NCBI GenBank assembly: GCA_020283715.1
Contig: JAIQCW010000149.1
Coordinates: 1-14,396 of the forward strand
From: Cytauxzoon felis
Lineage: Eukaryota > Apicomplexa > Aconoidasida > Piroplasmida > Theileriidae
DNA length: 14,396 nt
Reading direction: 5' to 3'
Shown piece by piece: positions 1,389 to 14,396 of this stretch (position 1 is its first letter; each line of letters starts with the position of its first letter). A program made the translations under genes and the position numbers. A model generated the notes under the pieces. It searched no databases, had not been told where the DNA came from, and worked only from the letters and a program-made list of their open reading frames with translations.

Positions 1389-3069
1389 ATGTCTAAGGAT
1401 CGTATTGGCGTCTTGTGGCACATGCCTTGGATGAAATACTCTTTTGATGTGAATCGCCTTTCACCTAAATCAATAGGAATCCCTAATAAAATTGATGCAA
1501 ATATATTAAACGTTGATAATACGAATTATGTTGAAATTCGTATCCTATTATCATCTATTTTAGGAAACCGCTCAACCATTCCTCATCTTAAATTATCCAA
1601 CTGGATCACATTGTACGACGCCGTATCTAAATATTTGGAAAGATTTAGATCAACTAGTTCTAAAAATTTATCTAGACATCAAATTACTGAACTTGTTAAC
1701 ATTTTGCAAAATGCTTCATATGTAGCGAATGTATTGATCAAAGATACGGTTTCCCTTGATTTTCTTAAACAACCTTTGACATTAATTGCAAACAATATTG
1801 CTAAAAATATTAATGCCGTCAGTAATAATGACCTGACAAGGATAGTATACGCTTGTTCCAAAGGTGGATTCTCATCACATAGCCTAATTAATCTTTCTTT
1901 CCTCCATTTGCTAGACAATGAAGGTACACAAACATTCTAACATGAAAATTATACTACAGTTATTCAACGGCTTAAAGATTTACATTATATACATATGATG
2001 AAAATATTACATTCTGCATCGCACATAGAGGTTGGATTCATTCGTAATCAAGACAATCTACCATTTGGAAATGAATTTAAGAGGTCTATAATAGATAGAC
2101 TAATAAATAGAATCGCAGATATACGACTAGTAGTTAGTAATTTTATGATAACACATAATGATATAGGATATAGCAAATTTGGTTTCGATTGCAGTAAAAC
2201 ATGATATTTTAAATAGAAATATTACTAATAAGATAAATAAAACATTTGAAAAACGGTAAAAACTATGATTCTCATTAATTTACATTCTAGTTTATATTCA
2301 TATAAACAACTAGATGAAACAATAAACACAGCGGTCTCGCTGTCAATGTATGGGATGCTTAATGCAAAAATTGCGGTATGCACGACATATAAAAAATAAT
2401 AGACAAATACAGAATATTATATTGCATAACTTAAACGATTTGAATCTAAAATTTAGTAATGACGTCAAACTGGTAATATTTAAACTTTATAAATAGCTAT
2501 TAATTTAATAGTCTGAGCCGAACCAATTATCAAAAAATAGTACCATGCTGTTTTTATTAAAGTTATTGGAAATATGTTTAAGATACAATACTCCAGAGGT
2601 ATAATAATTCGGTCATTATAATTAAATATTGCCTTAGGTCTATAGCTCAATATCTGAACAATCTAAATTAGTCTTGAAAAAAATACGAGATACAATTCCC
2701 ATATTAAATGAACCTAATGATTGGTGGTGTGGCATCAACTACAGCTCTAAATTAATCAAAGCAACATTAAAAAATATCGATATAAAACCTTTAAATATAA
2801 TTCCATACATTCACGGCCCATATGTTGTCGAAATATGTGATCCAACACACAAATTAATTATAGAACTTGATGAACCATGGATCTTCAATAAACACACATG
2901 GTCACATAAACATTTGTCATATTTTTACAGTATGAGATTAAAACACTTGTCAAACGACGGATTCCGATTTGTTAAGGTACCACATAAATTCTTATCACTT
3001 GATGAAGACCAACGTACCGAGTTCGTTTTAATAATATCCTTTATATTATACAATCAGAATTATATCTGA
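1389..3069 (+). CDS. RAP-domain protein, probable organelle RNA-binding factor, seven exons
   Basis: RAP proteins are expanded in apicomplexans. They bind RNA, and many act on mitochondrial or apicoplast transcripts and rRNA fragments. My model has exons 1389-1923, 1960-2129, 2167-2255, 2291-2375, 2413-2472, 2512-2598 and 2638-3069. The introns are 36, 37, 35, 37, 39 and 39 nt, giving 485 aa. The RAP domain lies at about residues 398-472: a GPYVVEICDP strand, then IIELDEPWIF, a TW...LSYFYSMRLKHL helix and GFRFVKVP, which is the restriction-endonuclease-like fold typical of RAP. Residues 60-390 are mostly helical with short leucine-rich repeats (for example NNDLTRIVYACSKGG), as in FASTK/OPR-like RAP proteins. 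The N-terminus has no clear transit peptide. The second donor is ambiguous (GTAGTT at 2130 or GTTAGT at 2133, adding one Val). The target RNA and the organelle cannot be told from sequence. Confidence 0.87.
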
Positions 3070-4773: not shown

Positions 4774-6174
4774 TCAAAGATCAGCGTAAATGGTTTTTGG
4801 TATTGTTATATCCAATGGATTAAGCCATTCCTCTATTATAGAAGATATTGATGAAGTATATAATGGAGATGTTATAACGTGTGTTCTCCCATCTAATTCA
4901 AATAGTTTTGTCAGATCACTGTCTTTAAAATATGTGTCTATATACTCTCTTGGACCCTGAAACATTGAAGTGATCATAGATGGAAGTACATAGACTTACC
5001 TCTACACTACACATTTGGTCATCTTTCGAGTGAATGAAGAGTGTCGGTAGATCTTTGGGGTAATAATCCATTTTAGTTCTTAAATCTTTAGTTGCATCAT
5101 ATACTATTAAAACCATTCTCGATGGCAACCTCTTCTTAAAGAAAATTGGGTCCTGTAGAGATAAATTTTGCTGGATAAGACATCATGACTTACGTTATAA
5201 CGCATGCATGGAATCATTCCATCAGCGTATCCATCAGTATTTTCAAGAATTATTGTATGTTTTGGTGCGATAAGTGAATAAAGTCTAAGAATGGGCATTA
5301 GAAGAAACTTAATACCACTGTAGTGATGGTCAATATTAAGCATGCCCCCCATGCTTATTATACCGTCTACGAATTTAGTCGGTTTTTCAATATTCAAATT
5401 AAATAAGATTTGTGATTTTAGGACTATATTTCCACCCATTGATAGTCCTCCTAAGTGATATTTATTATCATCAGATCTTTCGTCCCTAAATACTACATCC
5501 GCATTCCACGTTTCACCAGGATCGTCGAATTTTCCTCTCTTTACGATACTGACGAATTGTATGACGTCATAAACAAAGTCGTCGAACTTTTCAACATAAC
5601 ACCTTTGGTCACATACACCACCAGATAATCCATGGGATTGTAGATCTAGGCCATACACGGAATAATTTAAATTATTTAATGCTTGTACAAAACTACCTTC
5701 ATATAAAAATCTGGGTGTTAAATCAAATGCATTTTTACCATGTAATGAATCCTTATATGTCAATGATTGACCATTATAAGATTTCGTAAAACTAGGGAAA
5801 ATACCATCCAACTCTCTATTTCCTACGATTTTAGCAGTCGAATTTACATACTCTGTAACATATTTCATATACCAATCAACATTATATGAACAAAATTCTG
5901 CTCTAAAATGACTGCGGATGCCATGAACCAATATTACGTGACCTTTTGGATTGTTCACCCTAGAAGCATATGTACGTATTAATACCCCTTGCTTGTTTTT
6001 AAAATAACCCAATAATAAATTGCCATTTTTACTTAAAGGTGCCATGCTAGATACGCCTAAGCGAATCGGCCTAAGGGTGTACAATTGAAAAGGATTAGGC
6101 TTATAACAAAGGACGGATGTATTAAAGAATAAATTTATAGTAAATGTAACTACACCAATTCTAAAAACAATCAT
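4774..6174 (-). CDS. Secreted alpha/beta hydrolase, PST-A/lysophospholipase-like, three exons
   Basis: This is a serine hydrolase of the monoglyceride lipase/lysophospholipase superfamily that apicomplexans have expanded (Plasmodium PST-A and PARE-type esterases). Exons are 5194-6174, 5000-5152 and 4774-4956, with introns of 41 and 43 nt, both GTAAGT...CAG; the product is 438 aa. Residues 1-23 (MIVFRIGVVTFTINLFF...) look like a signal peptide. The fold landmarks are VILVHGIRSH (oxyanion side, about 80-89), YGLDLQSHGLSGG (174-186) and the nucleophile elbow GLSMGG with Ser245. Asp372 (in HSKDDQMC) and His404 (in GRTHV) complete the triad, so the enzyme looks active. The triad is whole only after splicing, because Asp and His are on exons 2 and 3. 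Residues 110-155 form a family-typical insertion near the lid. Substrate is unknown: a lysophospholipid, monoacylglycerol or other ester is possible. Confidence 0.9.
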
Positions 6175-6388
6175 TACACGACAAAACTAGTGAATATTCC
6201 GGGTAGAAAAATCATATAATGCAAATAGTTCCCCATTTGCTTTATGGACAATTAGACAAAAACAAATTTTTGGTGCATATATGAACATAATGGGTTAAAA
6301 TATTACACAGATAAATTGATCTGATTTAAAATTGTTGTTTTGGTACAAGAAACATCGGTCTCTTATCCCTATTCTATATATATGATTT

Positions 6389-9300
6389 TTATTTAGTACA
6401 ACGTACGTTATGATTTGGGCGTTCTAACATCATAGCATTAATATTTACATGAGTAACGTTGTTATTCCTTCGATCAATCGGTACCGATCCATATATGTTA
6501 TTGTATCCCCAATTCTGTATGCCGTGTTGGTTGTTGATACTTCCAGTATTATATTGCGATATAAAGTGTTTATTAATTGGAATATGCGGACTACCTATTG
6601 GGGTTTTAATGCGATTGTTTACGATTCTATTATCTTGTGTGTGTTGATTTAGTTCCGTTGAGCCGTTGGTACTCAAGAAATTACTAATAGCGTTTATACC
6701 ATACCTTGGTAATTCACCAAAGAATGTACGAGGTAACCCATACATTATGGACACCATTGCGGGTGGAGCAGAATCAGCTTTTATAATTCTATTGGTGAAT
6801 GGTTCTGTAACAATTCTTTTAACATATTCGTGACGCAATAAATTTTTGTGAGGCCTTCTCAGAGGTCCGGTTTTATCAATGACAACTGGACTATAAACCA
6901 ATTCCAGTGGAAGGCTAATTCTGTTTTTGATACGTTGTTTACCGAATGGGTCGGGATTATATAAATAGTGCGTGTACGCATAAGCTCTTTTCGAACATTG
7001 TTCTTGAACGATCCTACAAATTATCGATGTATAACAATATAAACATACTCTTTATTAAACATTTCTATAGTGTGTTCTATACAATAAGGACGTAAGCAAA
7101 TGGCTGGAAAGACATAATCCTTTATACGTTCGCATTTGATCATACCACTTGATATAGATGAATCATGTAAAGGAGAGTATTCTACATATATCCCACCAAT
7201 CCATGCGCACATTGGATGAAATTTAGAACTACAAAAATCCCTAGAACATTTAACTAAATAACCGTCAAAAACACCACATATACTACAAGTATTTCCGTCG
7301 TTTTCAGAATTAATATTTTTTATATCCCACAAACTCAACGCATAAAGATCATAGCAATTTATATTAGGCATTAAAAACACAGCACAAATTAAGTGTATCC
7401 ACAGAGGAGGATCACTAATTGACCTATTACTACCACCAGCAACCCTTTTCAATGCTCCACCGCTACTGCAACATATACAGCATACAGCACTATTTCCAAT
7501 ATATTCACATTTTGGAGCCAGACTATCTTCAAATTCACACGGTTCACAAAACCAAATGGATAATAGTTCTTCCTGTCTGCCAACTATCTTTGATTCAATT
7601 AAAGGTCTATACGATGAGTAACATTTGTGATGAACACGCATACAACAACGACTACATTGCTGCAGTACATGTTTGTGTGATAATTCGGGCATTAGACACA
7701 CTGAACAATATTCGTTACTTGTAGGTATATTATCGTCGGGATTATCACTGCAATGTCCCTTTTCAGAATTATTTGACATTGATGAAATAAAGCTTTCTAT
7801 TGAATTTTGAAAAGAGTTTTTGAAATGAGACCACCTATGCATATGACCAAATATCTCTTTTGACTCTTCAACGTGAGTTTTGTCTTCAAATTTACGATTG
7901 TAAAATTCGGAGTTTATTTTCACTCTCTCCAGTAGACGTACTTTATGGTGGGATATAGATCTGTTCACAACATTCAGTGCCATCATTAGAGCCACAGCTT
8001 GTTTTCCAACAAAATCATCCTTAGATATATCCCGTGTGATATCTGTAAATTGTTTAGTAATACCAATAATATCACGTAGATCGCAAAGTTCCATTGTGTC
8101 ACTAATAGTTGATTGCTTATTGGACACAAGAACATTTGCTATACTAGAGGGTTTCCTTTTAACTGAATCTAAAGCGATACAATATAAAGGAGGATCTAAA
8201 TCCCAATTATATCCATTTAATGTTATTACTGGTTTTTCATCATCAAACTTTGATTCGTTTTTATTGACATGATTGTGCGACATTAATGGAACCACCATGG
8301 CGTGACCTAGTTTATTAGATGGAAGATAATATAACGACTGTATAACGCGACGACAATATTCATATTCTAATGTGGATAATGGTATGTATTCCAATATTAC
8401 AATATCATGCTTCGAGGTTTTTACATTATTATTAACTATGAAAGAAAACCAAGCAGATTTGTTGTTATTCAAATGTAGCAGCGCAAAAAATGGTTTGCAG
8501 TAATTTATTTTGGGTTCAACTCCACATTTATGATTAGATAATGTTGATAGCGACTCATCGTTATTAGAATGTTGATCAACATTATCATTTGGATTGTTTC
8601 TCTTATATAAAGCTTCTAAATCTACGGTGGGATTTAGTTGCATGAGTATTGAATTTAAAACATTTTGTATGGTCAATTCATTATCACATACAATCCTTTT
8701 AAAATCAGTTAACATACATTTCGTCTTAAGTTTTAACAAATCCTTAATATCATTGTACATATAATACAGTTGTCCTTCATCATTCGGAGCATTATCGTCA
8801 AAAAGATCTGGTCTTATTTTAGCAAATAAAATATCATAGTGCCACCATTCAAAATTTTTAGCATTCTTTTGGCCGCAACTCCTACGTAAAGTATTATATT
8901 CTACCATTAGAGTTGTAATTGATTGCATATATTGGCTATTTGTAAGAGAATAAGATATATTTACGCTAGATACAGATTCAGATCTGGCAATACTTCTGGA
9001 TACAGTTTTACCAAATGTTTTTAATTGGTATTTTGGAACACTGTTATATGAATACAATGCATTACTATTTCTTGTAGTTGGTTTGAATGTATCAGTGTTT
9101 CTATTTTTAGATATTACCGATAATGATTTGAAAGTTGTAAAATCGTCCTTAACATCGACTGTTGTATCTATTAAAACTTCTACTTTACCATTAGCATTAT
9201 TGGTAGTATGTATATCCAAATATTCTTTAGTCAACGACAATTTTGACAAGAATCTGCATTTAACTATATTGATTTCATCCTCTTTAAGATGCGTTTGGCA

Positions 9301-9768
9301 TAGTACAAACCTATAATTTACACGTTTAACATTTGGATCATCAGTGTCAACTATTATAAACCCATTTCCAGCGCAATGTAAATGCATATAATTCGAACAG
9401 CCTTCTGCAGCACATTTAAAATACACATTCCTAGCATCACACGAATAACACTTATTACGATATATAGTCATTTGTTTTAAAATCGGCTGAAGATCTAACA
9501 CCTCAAGAAGTGAGACCGCATCTTTATTTTCTTCCTTGGTAATATTTAAATTATTCATAAACTCGTAAAATAATATAAGCGATAGGCATTCATAATGAAT
9601 GTGGATTGAAACATTATTATACGTATATCCAGTTGATGTGGCTCTCTTACAAATTACACATGAAACACGCCTATCCAAAGGTATGCTTTCGTATTTTGAA
9701 AAAATGAATTCTTCAAAGGAAAGGGAATCTTCCTTAGTACCATCACTTGTTAATTTCCTTTTATACAT
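6389..9768 (-). CDS. Large PHD / extended-PHD zinc-finger chromatin protein, two exons
   Basis: Exon 1 is 7049-9768 and exon 2 is 6389-7013, joined in phase 2 across a 35-nt GTATGT...TAG intron (7014-7048); the product is 1114 aa. Zinc-binding residues form two clusters. The first (about residues 37-160) has CVIC, HYEC, CYSC, FKCAAEGC, HLHC and a final CQTH, the C2HC-plus-PHD layout of an extended PHD. The second (about 688-900) has CSVC, CSRCC, HHKC and FCEPC (a PHD), then CCICC, HLICA, CSICG, CSRDFC, FHPMCAW and YCIEH (a second extended PHD). Such modules read histone H3 tails or bind DNA in BRPF, MLL and JADE-type proteins, and apicomplexans have several lineage-specific PHD proteins. Residues 170-685 are mostly low-conservation, Asn/Ser-rich sequence with a WWHYDILFAKIRPDLFDD helix. 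The tail after 905 is basic, then Asn-rich. No SET, bromo or acetyltransferase domain is visible. A nuclear chromatin role is inferred. Confidence 0.85.
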
Positions 9769-10405
9769 AATGTTGTTTGTTCATTTGCACAGATGCTATC
9801 ATTTCGTCAAGTGATATATGATAAATAAATACTCAACAAAGATGAATATTAAGACATAACGAAAAATATATAAATGAAACTAGACAAATACAAATGATAT
9901 ATTTACAAAACTCGTATATATCATAAAACAAACCAACAATTTCCAACTAAAATATTAAATACACATGTATGTATATGTTTACAGAGAACATTCACACCCG
10001 TCTTGAGAGCAGAGAGGTTGAATCTTACATGTATAATAAATATAATATAATTCTCCAGGTAAAAATCCAATGTAGAGCATAGTTAAAACGAATTATAATA
10101 ATGAGAATTGAGATATATCATAAATATAATACATATATAAACATAAAATAACGGGTCGGACTACAGATTTTAGTGTGTTCAATATCAATGGGGGATGTTA
10201 TTCGGTATTTATAACAACGGAACTTTATATACAGTTATAATATGACTTATTTTTGTACAACGTATTTAAAACTTCTTGTTCTAGTGTTAATTCAATCGTA
10301 GTTTTATAATATAATTGTTTTATCAATATATTAAACATAGTTCTACCAGGAATCTGGTAATAATTGCATATTATAATAAGAATCGCATTACCATTGATTT
10401 TTTAA
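9769..10405. promoter_or_regulatory. 637-bp divergent intergenic region (PHD protein / TRAPPC1)
   Basis: This is the longest gap in the window and separates two head-to-head start codons, so it should carry both promoters and 5' UTRs. Most of it is AT-rich with repeated TATA-like runs. Two islands are less AT-rich: about 9988-10028 (around ACACCCGTCTTGAGAGCAG) and about 10150-10225. A perfect 6-bp inverted repeat lies at 10344-10359. No tRNA, U-snRNA or convincing ORF was found. A tiny two-exon reading starting at 10189 is discussed under rejected items. Confidence 0.55.
10344..10359. repeat. Perfect inverted repeat TACCAG-GAAT-CTGGTA
   Basis: Two perfect 6-bp arms flank a 4-nt loop, 47 bp upstream of the TRAPPC1 start codon. 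In a region this AT-rich, a mixed-composition palindrome stands out. It could be a dimeric factor site or a small 5' UTR hairpin; chance is also possible. Confidence 0.5.
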
Positions 10406-10969
10406 ATGGCTGTTTTACATGGTTTTCATATATTTTTTAACAATCGTTGTATATATCGCTCTCTATATACTGATGCATCATTAAGGGCCGTAAGACGATG
10501 TAGTTCACATAGTAATTCAAATGAAGTGTCTAATAACCAAAATTCGTGTAAAAATATATCTATATCAATGGATTCAAATAAACAATATGAAAAATTGTTG
10601 ATTGGCTTTTTATCTGGATTGACATCATTTAGTAAAACTATTAATATGATGAATGATTTGAAGGTGCCAGATGCCTTATCTATCGCATATTTTAATTCAT
10701 GTACTACTTATAAGTTTAAAATACATTACTTAGAAACCATTACAGGCGTGTTATATATATATTAATTAACATTAATTTTAGGTTACAAACTAGTCTGTAT
10801 AACATCACCGGACGCGGTCGGATTGAAAAATACACTTAAAACTATATATATAGATTTGTTAACGAATGTTATACTATCTAATCCAGTATACAAGGTAGGT
10901 ACAATCATAGAATCAGATGAGTTTGACGAATTACTTTATAAGATGTTAACATCTAGTATACAACAATAA
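10406..10969 (+). CDS. TRAPP complex subunit TRAPPC1/Bet5, two exons
   Basis: Bet5/TRAPPC1 is a longin/sybindin-fold core subunit of the TRAPP complex, the exchange factor for Rab1/Ypt1 in ER-Golgi traffic. Exon 1 is 10406-10745 and exon 2 is 10782-10969, joined in phase 1; the product is 175 aa. Visible family features are a first strand with FHIFFNNRCIY, the LLIGFLSGLTSFSKTINM helix, YKFKIHYLETITG (the family's HYYETPTG strand), then YKLVCITSPD, LKNTLKTIYIDLLTNVILSNPVYK and a final ESDEFDELLYKML helix. Residues 25-60 are a Ser/Asn-rich insertion after the first strand, in the position of the usual short loop. The only splice that keeps the family frame uses a GC donor, described separately. 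The stop codon lies 2 bp from the stop of the convergent MSH1-like gene. Identification is firm; the exact junction is inferred. Confidence 0.88.
10746..10781 (+). other. Probable GC-AG intron in TRAPPC1
   Basis: Reading through exon 1 meets a stop after VLYIY. The conserved downstream frame (YKLVCITSPD...) is reached only if a phase-1 junction falls after ACAG, giving a 36-nt intron that starts GCGTGT and ends TTTTAG. Its length equals the local intron mode. The nearest GT donor (10748) gives a stop four codons after the same acceptor. Confidence 0.68.
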
Positions 10970-10971
10970 TA

Positions 10972-13900
10972 TTAATCTAAATAAGGTAAATCTTTAAAAT
11001 TTCCGTCTCTATGCGATATTAGTAGTAGTTTGCTGGGATATTTATATATTTTATTGATTAATTCCCTTTCATATAATTTGGCATCTTTTCTTGATTTACA
11101 TTTCATTAATATGGAATGTGAACCTTCCCAATCCATAATGTCAACTGAATTACTCTGATTACCGACCTTATAATTTAAGAATCGAGTAACTTCATCACTG
11201 TGCTCATTATATGTTTCGATTAGATATTGATCAATACCCTTACAATCCTTATTCCTATGCTTCTCTAGCCTATGTATTATATTACCAGATTCTCCTATGT
11301 ATATAGCATATTTTGGTCGATGTTTGGCTACTGTCTTAATGGGAATCAGTAGAATGTACAATATCGGCAAATGTGAGTATGATGGTGGTGGTATACTACG
11401 CGGAAATAGATATATAAAATTGCTAGTTCGTGGAGGTGTAAATATCTCGCTAATAGCTTTTAATATAATCAACACCTCGTGTTTAATAGATTCTGGAATA
11501 TCATTAATAAAAGAATGATTATTAATATTATTCGAGTCAGGTTGGTATTTCAAATCCAATGACAGATGTTGATATGTATTATTTGGCAATTTTAGGAGCA
11601 AATCTACATATTCATCACATTTCTCTTGTATGAATACACCATCTAAAATTGTTTTATAGCCATTTTCATTTACTATTTTACTGTATCGGAGTCCATCAAG
11701 GTTGATTGTATTCATCAAATATTCTTGAAAATGAGTAGAAATTACCGCAATGCACTTGTTTTTGATCAATATATCAACCATTTTAAGTAATATTTCTATA
11801 TAAATATTAAATGATATCGTATAAACATACTAATTGTAGTAGTTGTATTAGTCCCGATGCCTGGATTGTCCAATAGTACAATGGAATCCTCTGTAACATG
11901 ATCAATAATATATTTCAATTTCTTAACATTGCAATGAAATGGAATATTATTTCCGATACCCGAATTGTAAAAGTATCTTTTTATCATGGGTACGGATGAT
12001 GATGAAGATATGGGTGAATATAAACCTAAAGTGATAAAAATGTATCCATGTTAAAAATACCAATATTTGTTAGTAATAATGATTTTAAAATCGATAATAA
12101 TAGTGTAGATTTACCAGTGTTATGTTCACCTGTAATGATAGTTAACCCAGTCAAATCAATATTGAATGGTATTGAATCGTTAGAAAATATATAATGCAAA
12201 CCATTGATATTAAAACTATTACTTTTTAAATTAGGAATACACCATCCCCTTGATAAGGACCACCTTACATGATATGAAAGTGTCTAAAACAATGAATTTA
12301 ACTATAAATTACACATACCTGTAGTATAATCAAAAATTGGGATACAATTTCGAAGGATTGTAAATACGGTGTCAGTGATGAAGATAATCCAGTGATTATA
12401 CGGTTAACATTTATATCTGCTATGCTGCATATATGTTTGTAATTGATTAAACATTGAGTTACGTTAGGGTTTACATAAAAGACAGATGTATGACAATCTT
12501 TTGGAGACTAATAAAGTAAATCTTATAAATTCAATTACTAACTTCTATTGTAAATAAATTCGTATGGTCTATATATTCATTAAGCTTGTCAATATATATA
12601 TAATTGGAATTTTCTTTAATACTTCTATATACATGTGTATAATCACCTTTTATATCATTAAGATAATTTGATATGTAATCACGTCTTTCATTTATTTCAC
12701 ATGTATTTAATGGTATATGATATCCAACATAATGTTTTAATATACTATCCAACAAATTTACAGCAGCATTGTCGACCTTAGTTTGATCAACATTGTATAG
12801 GAATGAATGGCATTTAGTTCTAAAGGATTCCTAAATGATATCATACAATAAAATACGATAACAAACCATATTATTAAACAAATTATCAACTGATTCAATT
12901 CCAGTAGTAGGTATAATATTGTCAAAATCATCTACTTTGATCACTGATTTAATAATCTCAATGCACATCGAAACATCACTAATTATTGCATCAAGTCTCG
13001 AATGAATGTTCAATTCATAATCAACAATCTTCAATATTGATTCAACTAGTTCATTAGGCATATTTTCATAATAATGCTTAAAAGATGTCAAATTATGATA
13101 AACATTTTTATAAAAATTCACATCATTCTATAAAATTGATAAAAAATATTAAGAAACATACAGATATATTAATAAATTTCTTATTTGAAGTATAGACATT
13201 CATTGATTTAATTTGAATAAATGGGATATCAATCGTTTTGAGCTGTATATTAATAAATCTTATAATATCAGATATGTGAGATTTTGGATGCTTTAACAAC
13301 AACGATTTAATATAATTGATCATATATACAGGAGAATCTGATGGTAAAACTAAGTTTTGCAAACCAAAATCGCTATTAAGCCCCAAAACACTTGCACATT
13401 CATGATTTAATGGACAACTATCGTCATTTTCAAATGTCACTTTTGAACAATCAAAATCATCTGTAATATTTAAACGTCTAGCTATATCGTGGTAAGCTGC
13501 AATATGAAATTCATCTTCATCATATTTTCCCTATACAATATAACATATAAATAACAATACAAACCTCTAGTGTTTGACAATGTATAGATGTAGAAACATA
13601 TTTGACCAAACTTAATATTTCAGGTGAATTATTTTGAATCATAAAAACATCGCTAGGAACAGAGTTTAGTAGGGATAAAGCGCCAATCATGGTCAAACAT
13701 TCATGTAACCTAATAGATTTAACAGTAGTATCTATAATAGATATATTATATCCAAATTTACCATATGATATTGCCGGAATAATAAACAATTTAGTAGTAT
13801 TGTACTTATTCAATGTGTTTCTGTTGTTAAAATTATATATAGGAGAATATTTTGTCACAATTTGTGAAAGATAATGTGATTTTGAGTTAAATTTACAATT

Positions 13901-14220
13901 CATACCAGAATTAACCAGCTGTTCATATACAGCCACTGATAGTCCTATATCCGTCATCTTATTTAGTGTATTCTGAATTTGTGATAAATGTACCTCAACG
14001 AGAGGTGTAAGGGGAACATGTGATAAGCCGGCATATTCAACTAATAAAATCGAATCAATTCCAGTAGCATAATAACAATTATCAAATCTAATTAAAACAA
14101 TATGATCGGGGTAAGATTCTTTGGCATATTTAACTATGTTATCCAAACGATTAAATTTAGACAATTTAAAAGACGATGTTTTAAATATAATTTTATCAAG
14201 AAGCTTGCGAGCAGAATCAT
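10972..14220 (-). CDS. MSH1: MSH1-type MutS protein with C-terminal GIY-YIG nuclease domain, about nine exons
   Basis: This MutS homologue is of the MSH1/MutS7 type, which in plants acts in mitochondria and plastids to suppress mutation and recombination. Exons on the minus strand: 14220-14175, 14133-13565, 13530-13162, 13127-12867, 12830-12543, 12507-12319, 12283-12061, 12025-11831, 11795-10972; introns are 34-36 nt except the first (41). The product is about 987 aa. Domain I starts near residue 22 (HIVLIRF...GIDSILLVEYAG, very MSH1-like). Helical lever/clamp sequence spans about 230-570. Walker A is GEHNTGKST (626-634), the Walker B region is IVLLDNPGIGTNT (697-709), and a STHF switch is at 733-736. 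The GIY-YIG domain is about 857-983. The mismatch Phe-x-Glu and the Walker B Glu are both replaced. The first exon (MILLASFLIKLYLKH) is the weakest part; it supplies the only ATG and may be a targeting sequence. The core exon chain is well supported by open frames and homology. Confidence 0.88.
10985..11370 (-). other. GIY-YIG endonuclease domain of the MSH1-like protein
   Basis: Within the last exon, the first strand reads LPILYILLIP, with the Tyr of the GIY half but no Gly. The second half is YAIYIGES, an intact YIG. The helix IIHRLEKHR gives the conserved Arg, LYERELINKIYK the catalytic Glu, and HRDGNF a terminal Asn-Phe as in plant MSH1. A linker of about 40 residues between the helix and SHSILMKC is longer than in plants. 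Part of it (11155-11190, GTTACT...CAG, 36 nt, in frame) could be a hidden intron. Confidence 0.85.
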
Positions 14221-14396
14221 TTTTTTAGATTCAACAAATAAGATTTAATCTTGGAATTAGTAGAAGATAAGTTTATACGATTGGAAAAATGTCGAGAAGT
14301 AGTAATATACAAATTAAAAAAATAAATTGGATAATTATAAGAATAATAATTAGATAAAAAATTATGATTTAAAAACAAATTAGTATATTTATTAAA
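14221..14396. promoter_or_regulatory. AT-rich upstream region of the MSH1-like gene
   Basis: These last 176 bp are extremely AT-rich. They contain no ATG on the minus strand and no ORF of note on either strand, which fits a 5' UTR/promoter for the minus-strand gene. An upstream exon beyond the window cannot be excluded. Confidence 0.45.

What the first reader, a model, noticed from the sequence alone, without database searches (positions are those of the whole stretch)
10972..14220. MutS-GIY-YIG fusion (plant-MSH1 architecture) in a probable apicomplexan nuclear genome
Seen: nine open segments splice in frame through 34-41-nt introns into one protein that runs from an MSH1-like domain I to Walker A/B, a STH switch and a GIY-YIG domain. 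Known: this architecture is best known from plant organelle MSH1, and a mitochondrial MutS homologue has been reported in Toxoplasma; I cannot recall whether that one carries GIY-YIG. Inferred: this parasite keeps an MSH1-type system for its mitochondrial and/or apicoplast genome. That matters because piroplasm mitochondrial DNA is tiny and linear.
Basis: partly seen in the sequence, partly recalled or inferred. Interest (0 to 1): 0.82.

Follow-up and report, generated by a model that had tools for sequence, protein, structure and literature searches.

The report
Organelle DNA-repair gene of a parasite
A parasite whose nearest match is a horse blood parasite carries the same MutS-plus-nuclease gene that guards plant organelle DNA, a pairing already reported in its relatives, but here the residues thought to read mismatches and split ATP are gone while those of the DNA-cutting part remain.

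Summary
The gene is real: on the minus strand 8 exons (14224-10972) join through 7 GT-AG introns of 34-36 nt into one 1002-aa frame. The nearest protein found is a 'conserved hypothetical' of Theileria equi, 34% identical and colinear. The window protein aligns with plant MSH1 in two stretches, residues 29-755 and 851-913. Both piroplasm proteins group with plant MSH1, apart from bacterial MutS1, on very long branches. PPPS linker and GIY-YIG residues are kept. The architecture is known: PMC5687708 reports it for Toxoplasma MSH1 and related Apicomplexa. Not met in print: both proteins lack the mismatch-reading Phe-X-Glu (C-Y-Y, T-Y-Q) and the Walker B glutamate (Asn in both), while another MutS gene of this genome keeps both and a second keeps the glutamate. 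I read it as an organellar MSH1 that probably works as an ATP-binding clamp carrying a branched-DNA nuclease, not as a classical mismatch reader. The targeting end is missing: the contig stops at 14396 and the upstream frame breaks at an A7 run. Localisation and activity are untested.

The parts
13565..14224 (-). exon 1 as modelled (5' end incomplete, no start codon); holds MutS domain I
   Evidence: MutS_I E 0.17 here, 3.1e-8 in the T. equi orthologue
14069..14077 (-). residues 50-52, C-Y-Y at the place of the mismatch-reading Phe-X-Glu
   Evidence: T. equi T-Y-Q, Arabidopsis F-Y-E
13162..13530 (-). exon 2
   Evidence: T. equi match
12867..13127 (-). exon 3
   Evidence: in the T. equi match 12516-13127
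12543..12830 (-). exon 4
   Evidence: in the T. equi match 12516-13127
12319..12507 (-). exon 5
   Evidence: T. equi match
12061..12283 (-). exon 6, start of MutS domain V with Walker A GEHNTGKST (12107-12130)
11831..12025 (-). exon 7, Walker B region
   Evidence: MutS_V match at 11823-11942 (below cut-off); no T. equi match of its own
11865..11870 (-). Walker B Asp716-Asn717 (the catalytic Glu is Asn, as in T. equi)
10972..11795 (-). exon 8: STH switch (11731-11739), linker, PPPS (11380-11391), GIY-YIG domain, stop codon at 10974-10972
11068..11358 (-). GIY-YIG residues: Tyr875 (11356-11358), Tyr894 and Gly896 (11293-11301), Arg904 (11269-11271), His908 (11257-11259), Glu971 (11068-11070)
   Evidence: identical in T. 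equi and the four plant rows of A1, and in all 15 rows of A4. Glu971 is alignment-dependent: A3 (T. equi with plants, no window) puts another T. equi residue, Asp1022, at the plant Glu
14217..14396 (-). upstream open frame, 59 codons, no acidic and 7 basic residues, running off the contig end; in another frame than exon 1, which begins in the A7 run at 14220-14226; probably the N-terminal (targeting) part
   Evidence: resembles the T. equi sequence around ISRQFSS by eye. Frame break described, not mended

Best explanation
This is a single-copy nuclear gene for a piroplasm MSH1 of the plant/Toxoplasma type. The protein is probably imported into the mitochondrion (inferred), binds ATP through an intact Walker A and closes as a MutS-type clamp on DNA. 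It would act mainly through its C-terminal GIY-YIG nuclease on branched recombination or replication intermediates of the small linear mitochondrial DNA. Because the mismatch-reading Phe-X-Glu and the Walker B glutamate are both lost in two lineages that are only 34% identical, it most likely no longer reads mismatches by the Phe wedge and does not hydrolyse ATP at the usual rate. Shown: gene structure, orthology to T. equi, MSH1 membership, motif states. Inferred: import, clamp without turnover, branched-DNA cutting.
For: Spliced frame and exon-wise orthology; colinear match to plant MSH1; MSH1 profile 96.5 bits against 34.5 bits for the MutS1 profile; tree groupings with and without the GIY part. 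Motif states: C-Y-Y / T-Y-Q at F-x-E; N / N at the Walker B Glu; Walker A, Walker B Asp, STH and six GIY-YIG residues kept. The GIY-YIG region (58 of 146) and ATPase (50 of 124) are the most conserved parts of the pair at 40% each; the linker is 19%. Internal control: the two other MutS genes found in this genome (named MSH6- and MSH2-like by me) keep DELG, and the MSH6-like one keeps FYE. The Walker B Glu is kept in 120 of 120 plant proteins examined, the 120 listed of 496 hits. The plant GIY-YIG domain binds branched DNA (passage of PMC6963530 citing Fukui 2018), and plant MSH1 is titled a displacement-loop-specific endonuclease (title only, in the reference list of PMC12225983). Rieske-domain matches in the genome are consistent with a complex III.
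Against: No assay, transcript or localisation. Only two piroplasm sequences were compared; TgMSH1 and other apicomplexan MSH1 sequences were not reached, so the losses might be wider, or not shared by other piroplasms. The same passage of PMC6963530 says the isolated plant GIY-YIG domain was not active as an endonuclease, and PMC12225983 says there is some evidence for mismatch recognition followed by double-strand breaks in plants. Pfam and hhalign support only the first half of the GIY-YIG domain, and Glu971 depends on the alignment. Some MutS-family ATPases may tolerate changes at the Glu. COX1 and cytochrome b were not found in the assembly. The gene has a 5' frame break. The full-length T. 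equi model is unusable (mean pLDDT 41.5), so residues could not be placed in a structure.
Confidence: 0.5

Rival explanations
1. It is an ordinary organellar mismatch-repair MSH1 working as proposed for TgMSH1 and plants: mismatch sensing by other residues of domain I, followed by GIY-YIG cutting and recombinational repair. The substitutions are compensated drift.
For: Toxoplasma lacking TgMSH1 accumulates mitochondrial point mutations and loses mtDNA (PMC5687708, passages); some evidence in plants for mismatch recognition followed by double-strand breaks (PMC12225983 passage); domain I remains recognisable in T. equi and is 33 of 96 identical between the pair.
Against: Both residues of the Phe-X-Glu pair and the Walker B Glu are gone in both piroplasms, while a MutS paralogue in the same genome keeps them.
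Confidence: 0.28
2. The gene is decaying: degenerate motifs and a broken 5' end mark a pseudogene.
For: No start codon, upstream frame broken at an A7 run, weak Pfam scores.
Against: 1002 codons open through 7 clean introns; orthologous over its length with T. equi; nuclease, Walker A and STH residues kept. A homopolymer indel in the assembly explains the break more simply.
Confidence: 0.07
3. It is targeted to the apicoplast (or to both organelles, as in plants).
For: Plant MSH1 is dual-targeted (PMC12225983 passage).
Against: TgMSH1 is reported mitochondrial (PMC5687708 abstract). The upstream frame has no acidic residue; the first 55 residues of T. equi have 7 basic and 3 acidic ones. No targeting predictor was run.
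Confidence: 0.1
4. It is another MutS type (yeast MSH1/MutS1 or MutS7) that gained a GIY-YIG domain on its own.
For: Long branches; the plant MSH1 profile also scores the four bacterial MutS1 rows tried at 135-143 bits, above the window.
Against: Grouping with plant MSH1 holds on the MutS part alone (100/99), and holding the pair with MutS1 is rejected (p-AU 0.0027); shared PPPS linker before GIY-YIG. MutS7 was not sampled.
Confidence: 0.05

Closest known systems
Theileria equi strain WA 'conserved hypothetical protein' (P0121, 1103 aa)
   Same: Colinear, 34% identical, same losses at F-x-E and Walker B, same GIY-YIG residues, same insertion in the GIY-YIG domain relative to plants
   Different: Complete N-terminus; MutS_I above the Pfam cut-off
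Toxoplasma gondii TgMSH1
   Same: Domains I and V plus C-terminal GIY-YIG; mitochondrial MutS homologue (PMC5687708, passages)
   Different: Sequence not reached here; whether it shares the motif losses is unknown
Plant MSH1 (CHM), Arabidopsis P0002
   Same: Architecture, PPPS linker, GIY-YIG residues, order of the aligned regions
   Different: 20-21% identity; plants keep FYE and DE; the piroplasm GIY-YIG domain carries one insertion of about 40 residues and one of about 9
Yeast-type MSH1 / bacterial MutS1
   Same: MutS domains I and V
   Different: Yeast-type MSH1 is a different part of the MutS family (PMC12292046 passages); bacterial MutS1 rejected as nearest kin. That they lack GIY-YIG is from PMC5687708 for yeast; the 61 bacterial frames used are all under 1000 aa

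Membership tests
Plant-type MSH1 (MutS + GIY-YIG) | C-terminal GIY-YIG domain on the same polypeptide | tested here: met
   Same exon as STH; hhalign 93.8% with linker, 69% without, 50 shuffles of the latter at most 6.8%, first half of the domain only; Y,Y,G,R,H,E aligned in A1 and A4, Glu not in A3. Pfam alone is below cut-off (E 0.039; none)
Plant-type MSH1 (MutS + GIY-YIG) | MutS domain V | tested here: met
   MutS_V 51.1 bits, cut-off 30.2
Plant-type MSH1 (MutS + GIY-YIG) | MutS domain I | tested here: met
   Window below cut-off (12.6 of 20.6 bits); aligned in the MSH1 profile; orthologue 34.3 bits, above cut-off
Plant-type MSH1 (MutS + GIY-YIG) | Groups with plant MSH1 in a MutS tree | tested here: met
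   100/99 on the MutS part alone, AU test 0.0027; long-branch warning applies; no MutS7, protist or viral MSH1 in the tree
Plant-type MSH1 (MutS + GIY-YIG) | Organelle targeting | not testable with these tools
   N-terminus missing or in another frame; contig ends at 14396
Classical mismatch-reading MutS (function) | Phe-X-Glu in domain I | tested here: not met
   C-Y-Y here, T-Y-Q in T. equi
Classical mismatch-reading MutS (function) | Walker B Asp-Glu | tested here: not met
   Asp-Asn in both piroplasms
Toxoplasma-type apicomplexan MSH1 | Orthology to TgMSH1 | not tested
Yeast MSH1 / MutS1 | Nearest kin among MutS1 | tested here: not met
   Held together with 9 bacterial MutS1 rows: p-AU 0.0027; yeast MSH1 itself was not in the tree

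The most novel reading that the evidence does not exclude
Piroplasms have turned MSH1 from a mismatch-repair enzyme into a mismatch-blind, ATP-locked clamp that delivers a GIY-YIG nuclease to branched DNA. It may serve as the resolvase or recombination gatekeeper for their tiny linear mitochondrial chromosomes with terminal inverted repeats.
Probability: 0.3. Interest if true: 0.75.

Novelty: new variant of a known kind. Interest (0 to 1): 0.5.

Why it matters
MSH1 keeps plant organelle mutation rates very low and is usually explained as mismatch reading joined to a nuclease. A natural MSH1 that keeps the nuclease residues and drops both the mismatch reader and the ATP-hydrolysis glutamate would separate the two roles, and it offers a candidate for how small linear piroplasm mitochondrial DNAs handle recombination and ends.

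Tried and rejected
Protein search with the whole spliced protein: none of 7954 candidates scored E<=0.001; a search with denser words from the C-terminal part found T. equi as the only hit at E<=10 of 359 candidates. The tool reaches only relatives sharing short exact words, so this does not show that other piroplasms lack the gene. NCBIfam on the C-terminal 413 aa: best matches KamC ATPase 50.7, MutS2 45.0 and MutS 44.3 bits, all far below their cut-offs.

Scans for bacterial and viral MSH1: one search found 1 stretch and no relative; one search gave 65 loci, of which 61 gave a usable open frame, all under 1000 aa, used as MutS1 outgroup; one search gave 1 weak viral locus; one search gave 76 viral loci; in these and the locus the MSH1 profile matched one frame at E<=1e-5, in the locus.

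Circular counts set aside: the bacterial MutS1 frames were selected for FYE and DE, so '61 of 61' means nothing. Of 120 plant proteins, 120 have DE; FYE was read in 78, and 42 did not match the flanking pattern (not examined further).

An intron joining the upstream frame to exon 1: two GT-AG joins keep both frames open, but they are 145 and 148 nt long, against 34-36 nt for the seven modelled, and would remove part of exon 1; judged unlikely. The chance that the 177-nt upstream frame stays open by composition is 221 of 20000 single-base shuffles.

Full report
What is there. On the minus strand, exons 14224-13565, 13530-13162, 13127-12867, 12830-12543, 12507-12319, 12283-12061, 12025-11831 and 11795-10972 join through seven GT-AG introns of 34, 34, 36, 35, 35, 35 and 35 nt into 1002 codons and a stop. 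The model opens directly after an in-frame TAA and has no start codon; the window is the whole of contig C88 (14396 bases), so nothing further upstream exists here.

Independent support for the model. A search of the whole unspliced genome (8.62 Mb, 181 contigs) with the T. equi relative gave six matches at E<=1, all in this locus, in order, covering its residues 62-743 and 802-1100. So the gene is single copy at that sensitivity. Exon 7 had no match there; it is matched by MutS_V below cut-off and inside the spliced MutS_V match.

Family. Pfam finds MutS_V at 2.2e-13 and MutS_I at 0.17, below cut-off. Against solved structures the best matches are bacterial MutS at 1.5e-8, over the ATPase. 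A profile from 94 of the 120 plant MSH1 proteins listed matches residues 29-755 and, weakly (5.9 bits), 851-913, at 96.5 bits in total, while the best of 500 shuffles reaches 1.8. The same protein scores 34.5 bits with a MutS1 profile, and T. equi 121.3 against 53.1. The four MutS1 rows scored (of 61) reach 135-143 bits with the MSH1 profile, above the window, so the score alone is not specific; the difference between the two profiles and the tree are what count. In trees, the two piroplasm rows join plant MSH1 with 100/100 (18 rows) and 100/99 when the MSH1 and MutS1 rows are cut after STH (20 rows); the opposite grouping is rejected at p-AU 0.0027. The program warns of long branches and odd composition, and the stem of the pair is about 3 changes per site.

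GIY-YIG. The last exon carries STH, a poorly conserved linker, PPPS and the GIY-YIG region in one open frame. Pfam GIY-YIG reaches only E 0.039 there, nothing at E<=1 on the whole protein, and nothing at E<=0.001 in the genome. The pair alignment of window and T. equi matches 93 plant GIY-YIG ends with hhalign probability 93.8% including PPPS and 69% without it; 50 column shuffles of the latter reach at most 6.8%. Both hhalign matches stop before the second half of the domain. Tyr875, Tyr894, Gly896, Arg904, His908 and Glu971 are identical in T. equi and the four plants of A1 and in all 15 rows of A4. In A3, T. equi with 19 plants and no window, the plant Glu falls on T. equi Asp1022 instead, so Glu971 is the least secure of the six. 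That these are catalytic positions of the superfamily is recalled knowledge, not from a call.

What is different. At the mismatch-reading Phe-X-Glu the window has C-Y-Y and T. equi T-Y-Q, where plants have F-Y-E; at the Walker B Glu both have Asn. Walker A, the Walker B Asp and STH are kept. All 120 listed plant proteins keep the Walker B Glu. In the same genome two other MutS genes were found: one on contig 102 (MSH6-like, my naming) keeps FYELF, GPNMGGKST and DELGRGT, and one on contig 85 (MSH2-like, my naming) keeps GPNMGGKST and DELGRGT, so the change is specific to this gene. The two piroplasm proteins are 34% identical overall, with 40% in the ATPase and GIY-YIG parts and 19% in the linker. 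That the two motifs read mismatches and support ATP hydrolysis is established MutS knowledge, recalled.

How it most likely works. I infer an imported organellar protein that still binds ATP and can close as a clamp, cannot read mismatches by the usual wedge, hydrolyses ATP slowly or not at all, and delivers a GIY-YIG nuclease to branched intermediates. From the plant enzyme: its GIY-YIG domain binds branched DNA, though the isolated domain was not active as an endonuclease (passage of PMC6963530 citing Fukui 2018), and the full protein is described as a displacement-loop-specific endonuclease (title of Penafiel-Ayala 2024 in the reference list of PMC12225983; the paper itself was not held). 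Against it, PMC12225983 says some evidence supports mismatch recognition followed by double-strand breaks in plants. Piroplasm mitochondrial genomes are small linear molecules, several with terminal inverted repeats, and the B. microti group shows flip-flop inversions (PMC5104439 passages; PMC8554336 passages; the latter names neither MSH1 nor MutS). This organism's mitochondrial genome was not found: COX1 and cytochrome b profiles gave no match in the assembly, while Rieske-domain matches and a weak cytochrome c match are consistent with a respiratory chain.

Source organism. The rRNA search did not complete, so the genus is not settled.

Novelty. PMC5687708 says TgMSH1 has a C-terminal GIY-YIG domain like Arabidopsis MSH1, and that MSH1 of related Apicomplexa contains it too (passages). 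PMC12292046 reports plant-type MSH1 in protists with secondary plastids, a gammaproteobacterial clade and giant viruses (passages). So the fusion is a new member of a known kind. The paired loss of F-x-E and Walker B Glu was not met in the listings of searches or in the passages read; those searches cover only open-licence papers, and none asked for these motifs by name.

Noticed in passing
14217-14396: Open frame of 59 codons with no Asp/Glu runs off the contig end and is in another frame than exon 1, with the change at an A7 run; likely the targeting end of the same protein behind an assembly indel.
   Followed up: partly
10406-10974: A plus-strand Sybindin-like (TRAPP-type) frame (PF04099, 25.7 bits, cut-off 25) whose downstream frame ends at 10969, two bases from the MSH1 stop codon: convergent genes with almost no space.
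   Followed up: partly
1389-3069: Plus-strand frames, one with a RAP-domain match just below cut-off (21.5 of 24.2 bits); RAP proteins are often organellar RNA factors (recalled).
   Followed up: no
7021-9780 and 5107-6186: A 919-aa PHD-type zinc-finger protein and an S33 hydrolase-like protein, both minus strand.
   Followed up: no
G000 contig 102, 29839-31631 (L156): The MSH6-like gene has about 1.24 kb between its Walker A and Walker B halves, although the introns of the window gene are 34-36 nt; unexplained.
   Followed up: no
G000 whole assembly: No COX1 or cytochrome b match, so the mitochondrial genome seems to be missing from the assembly.
   Followed up: partly
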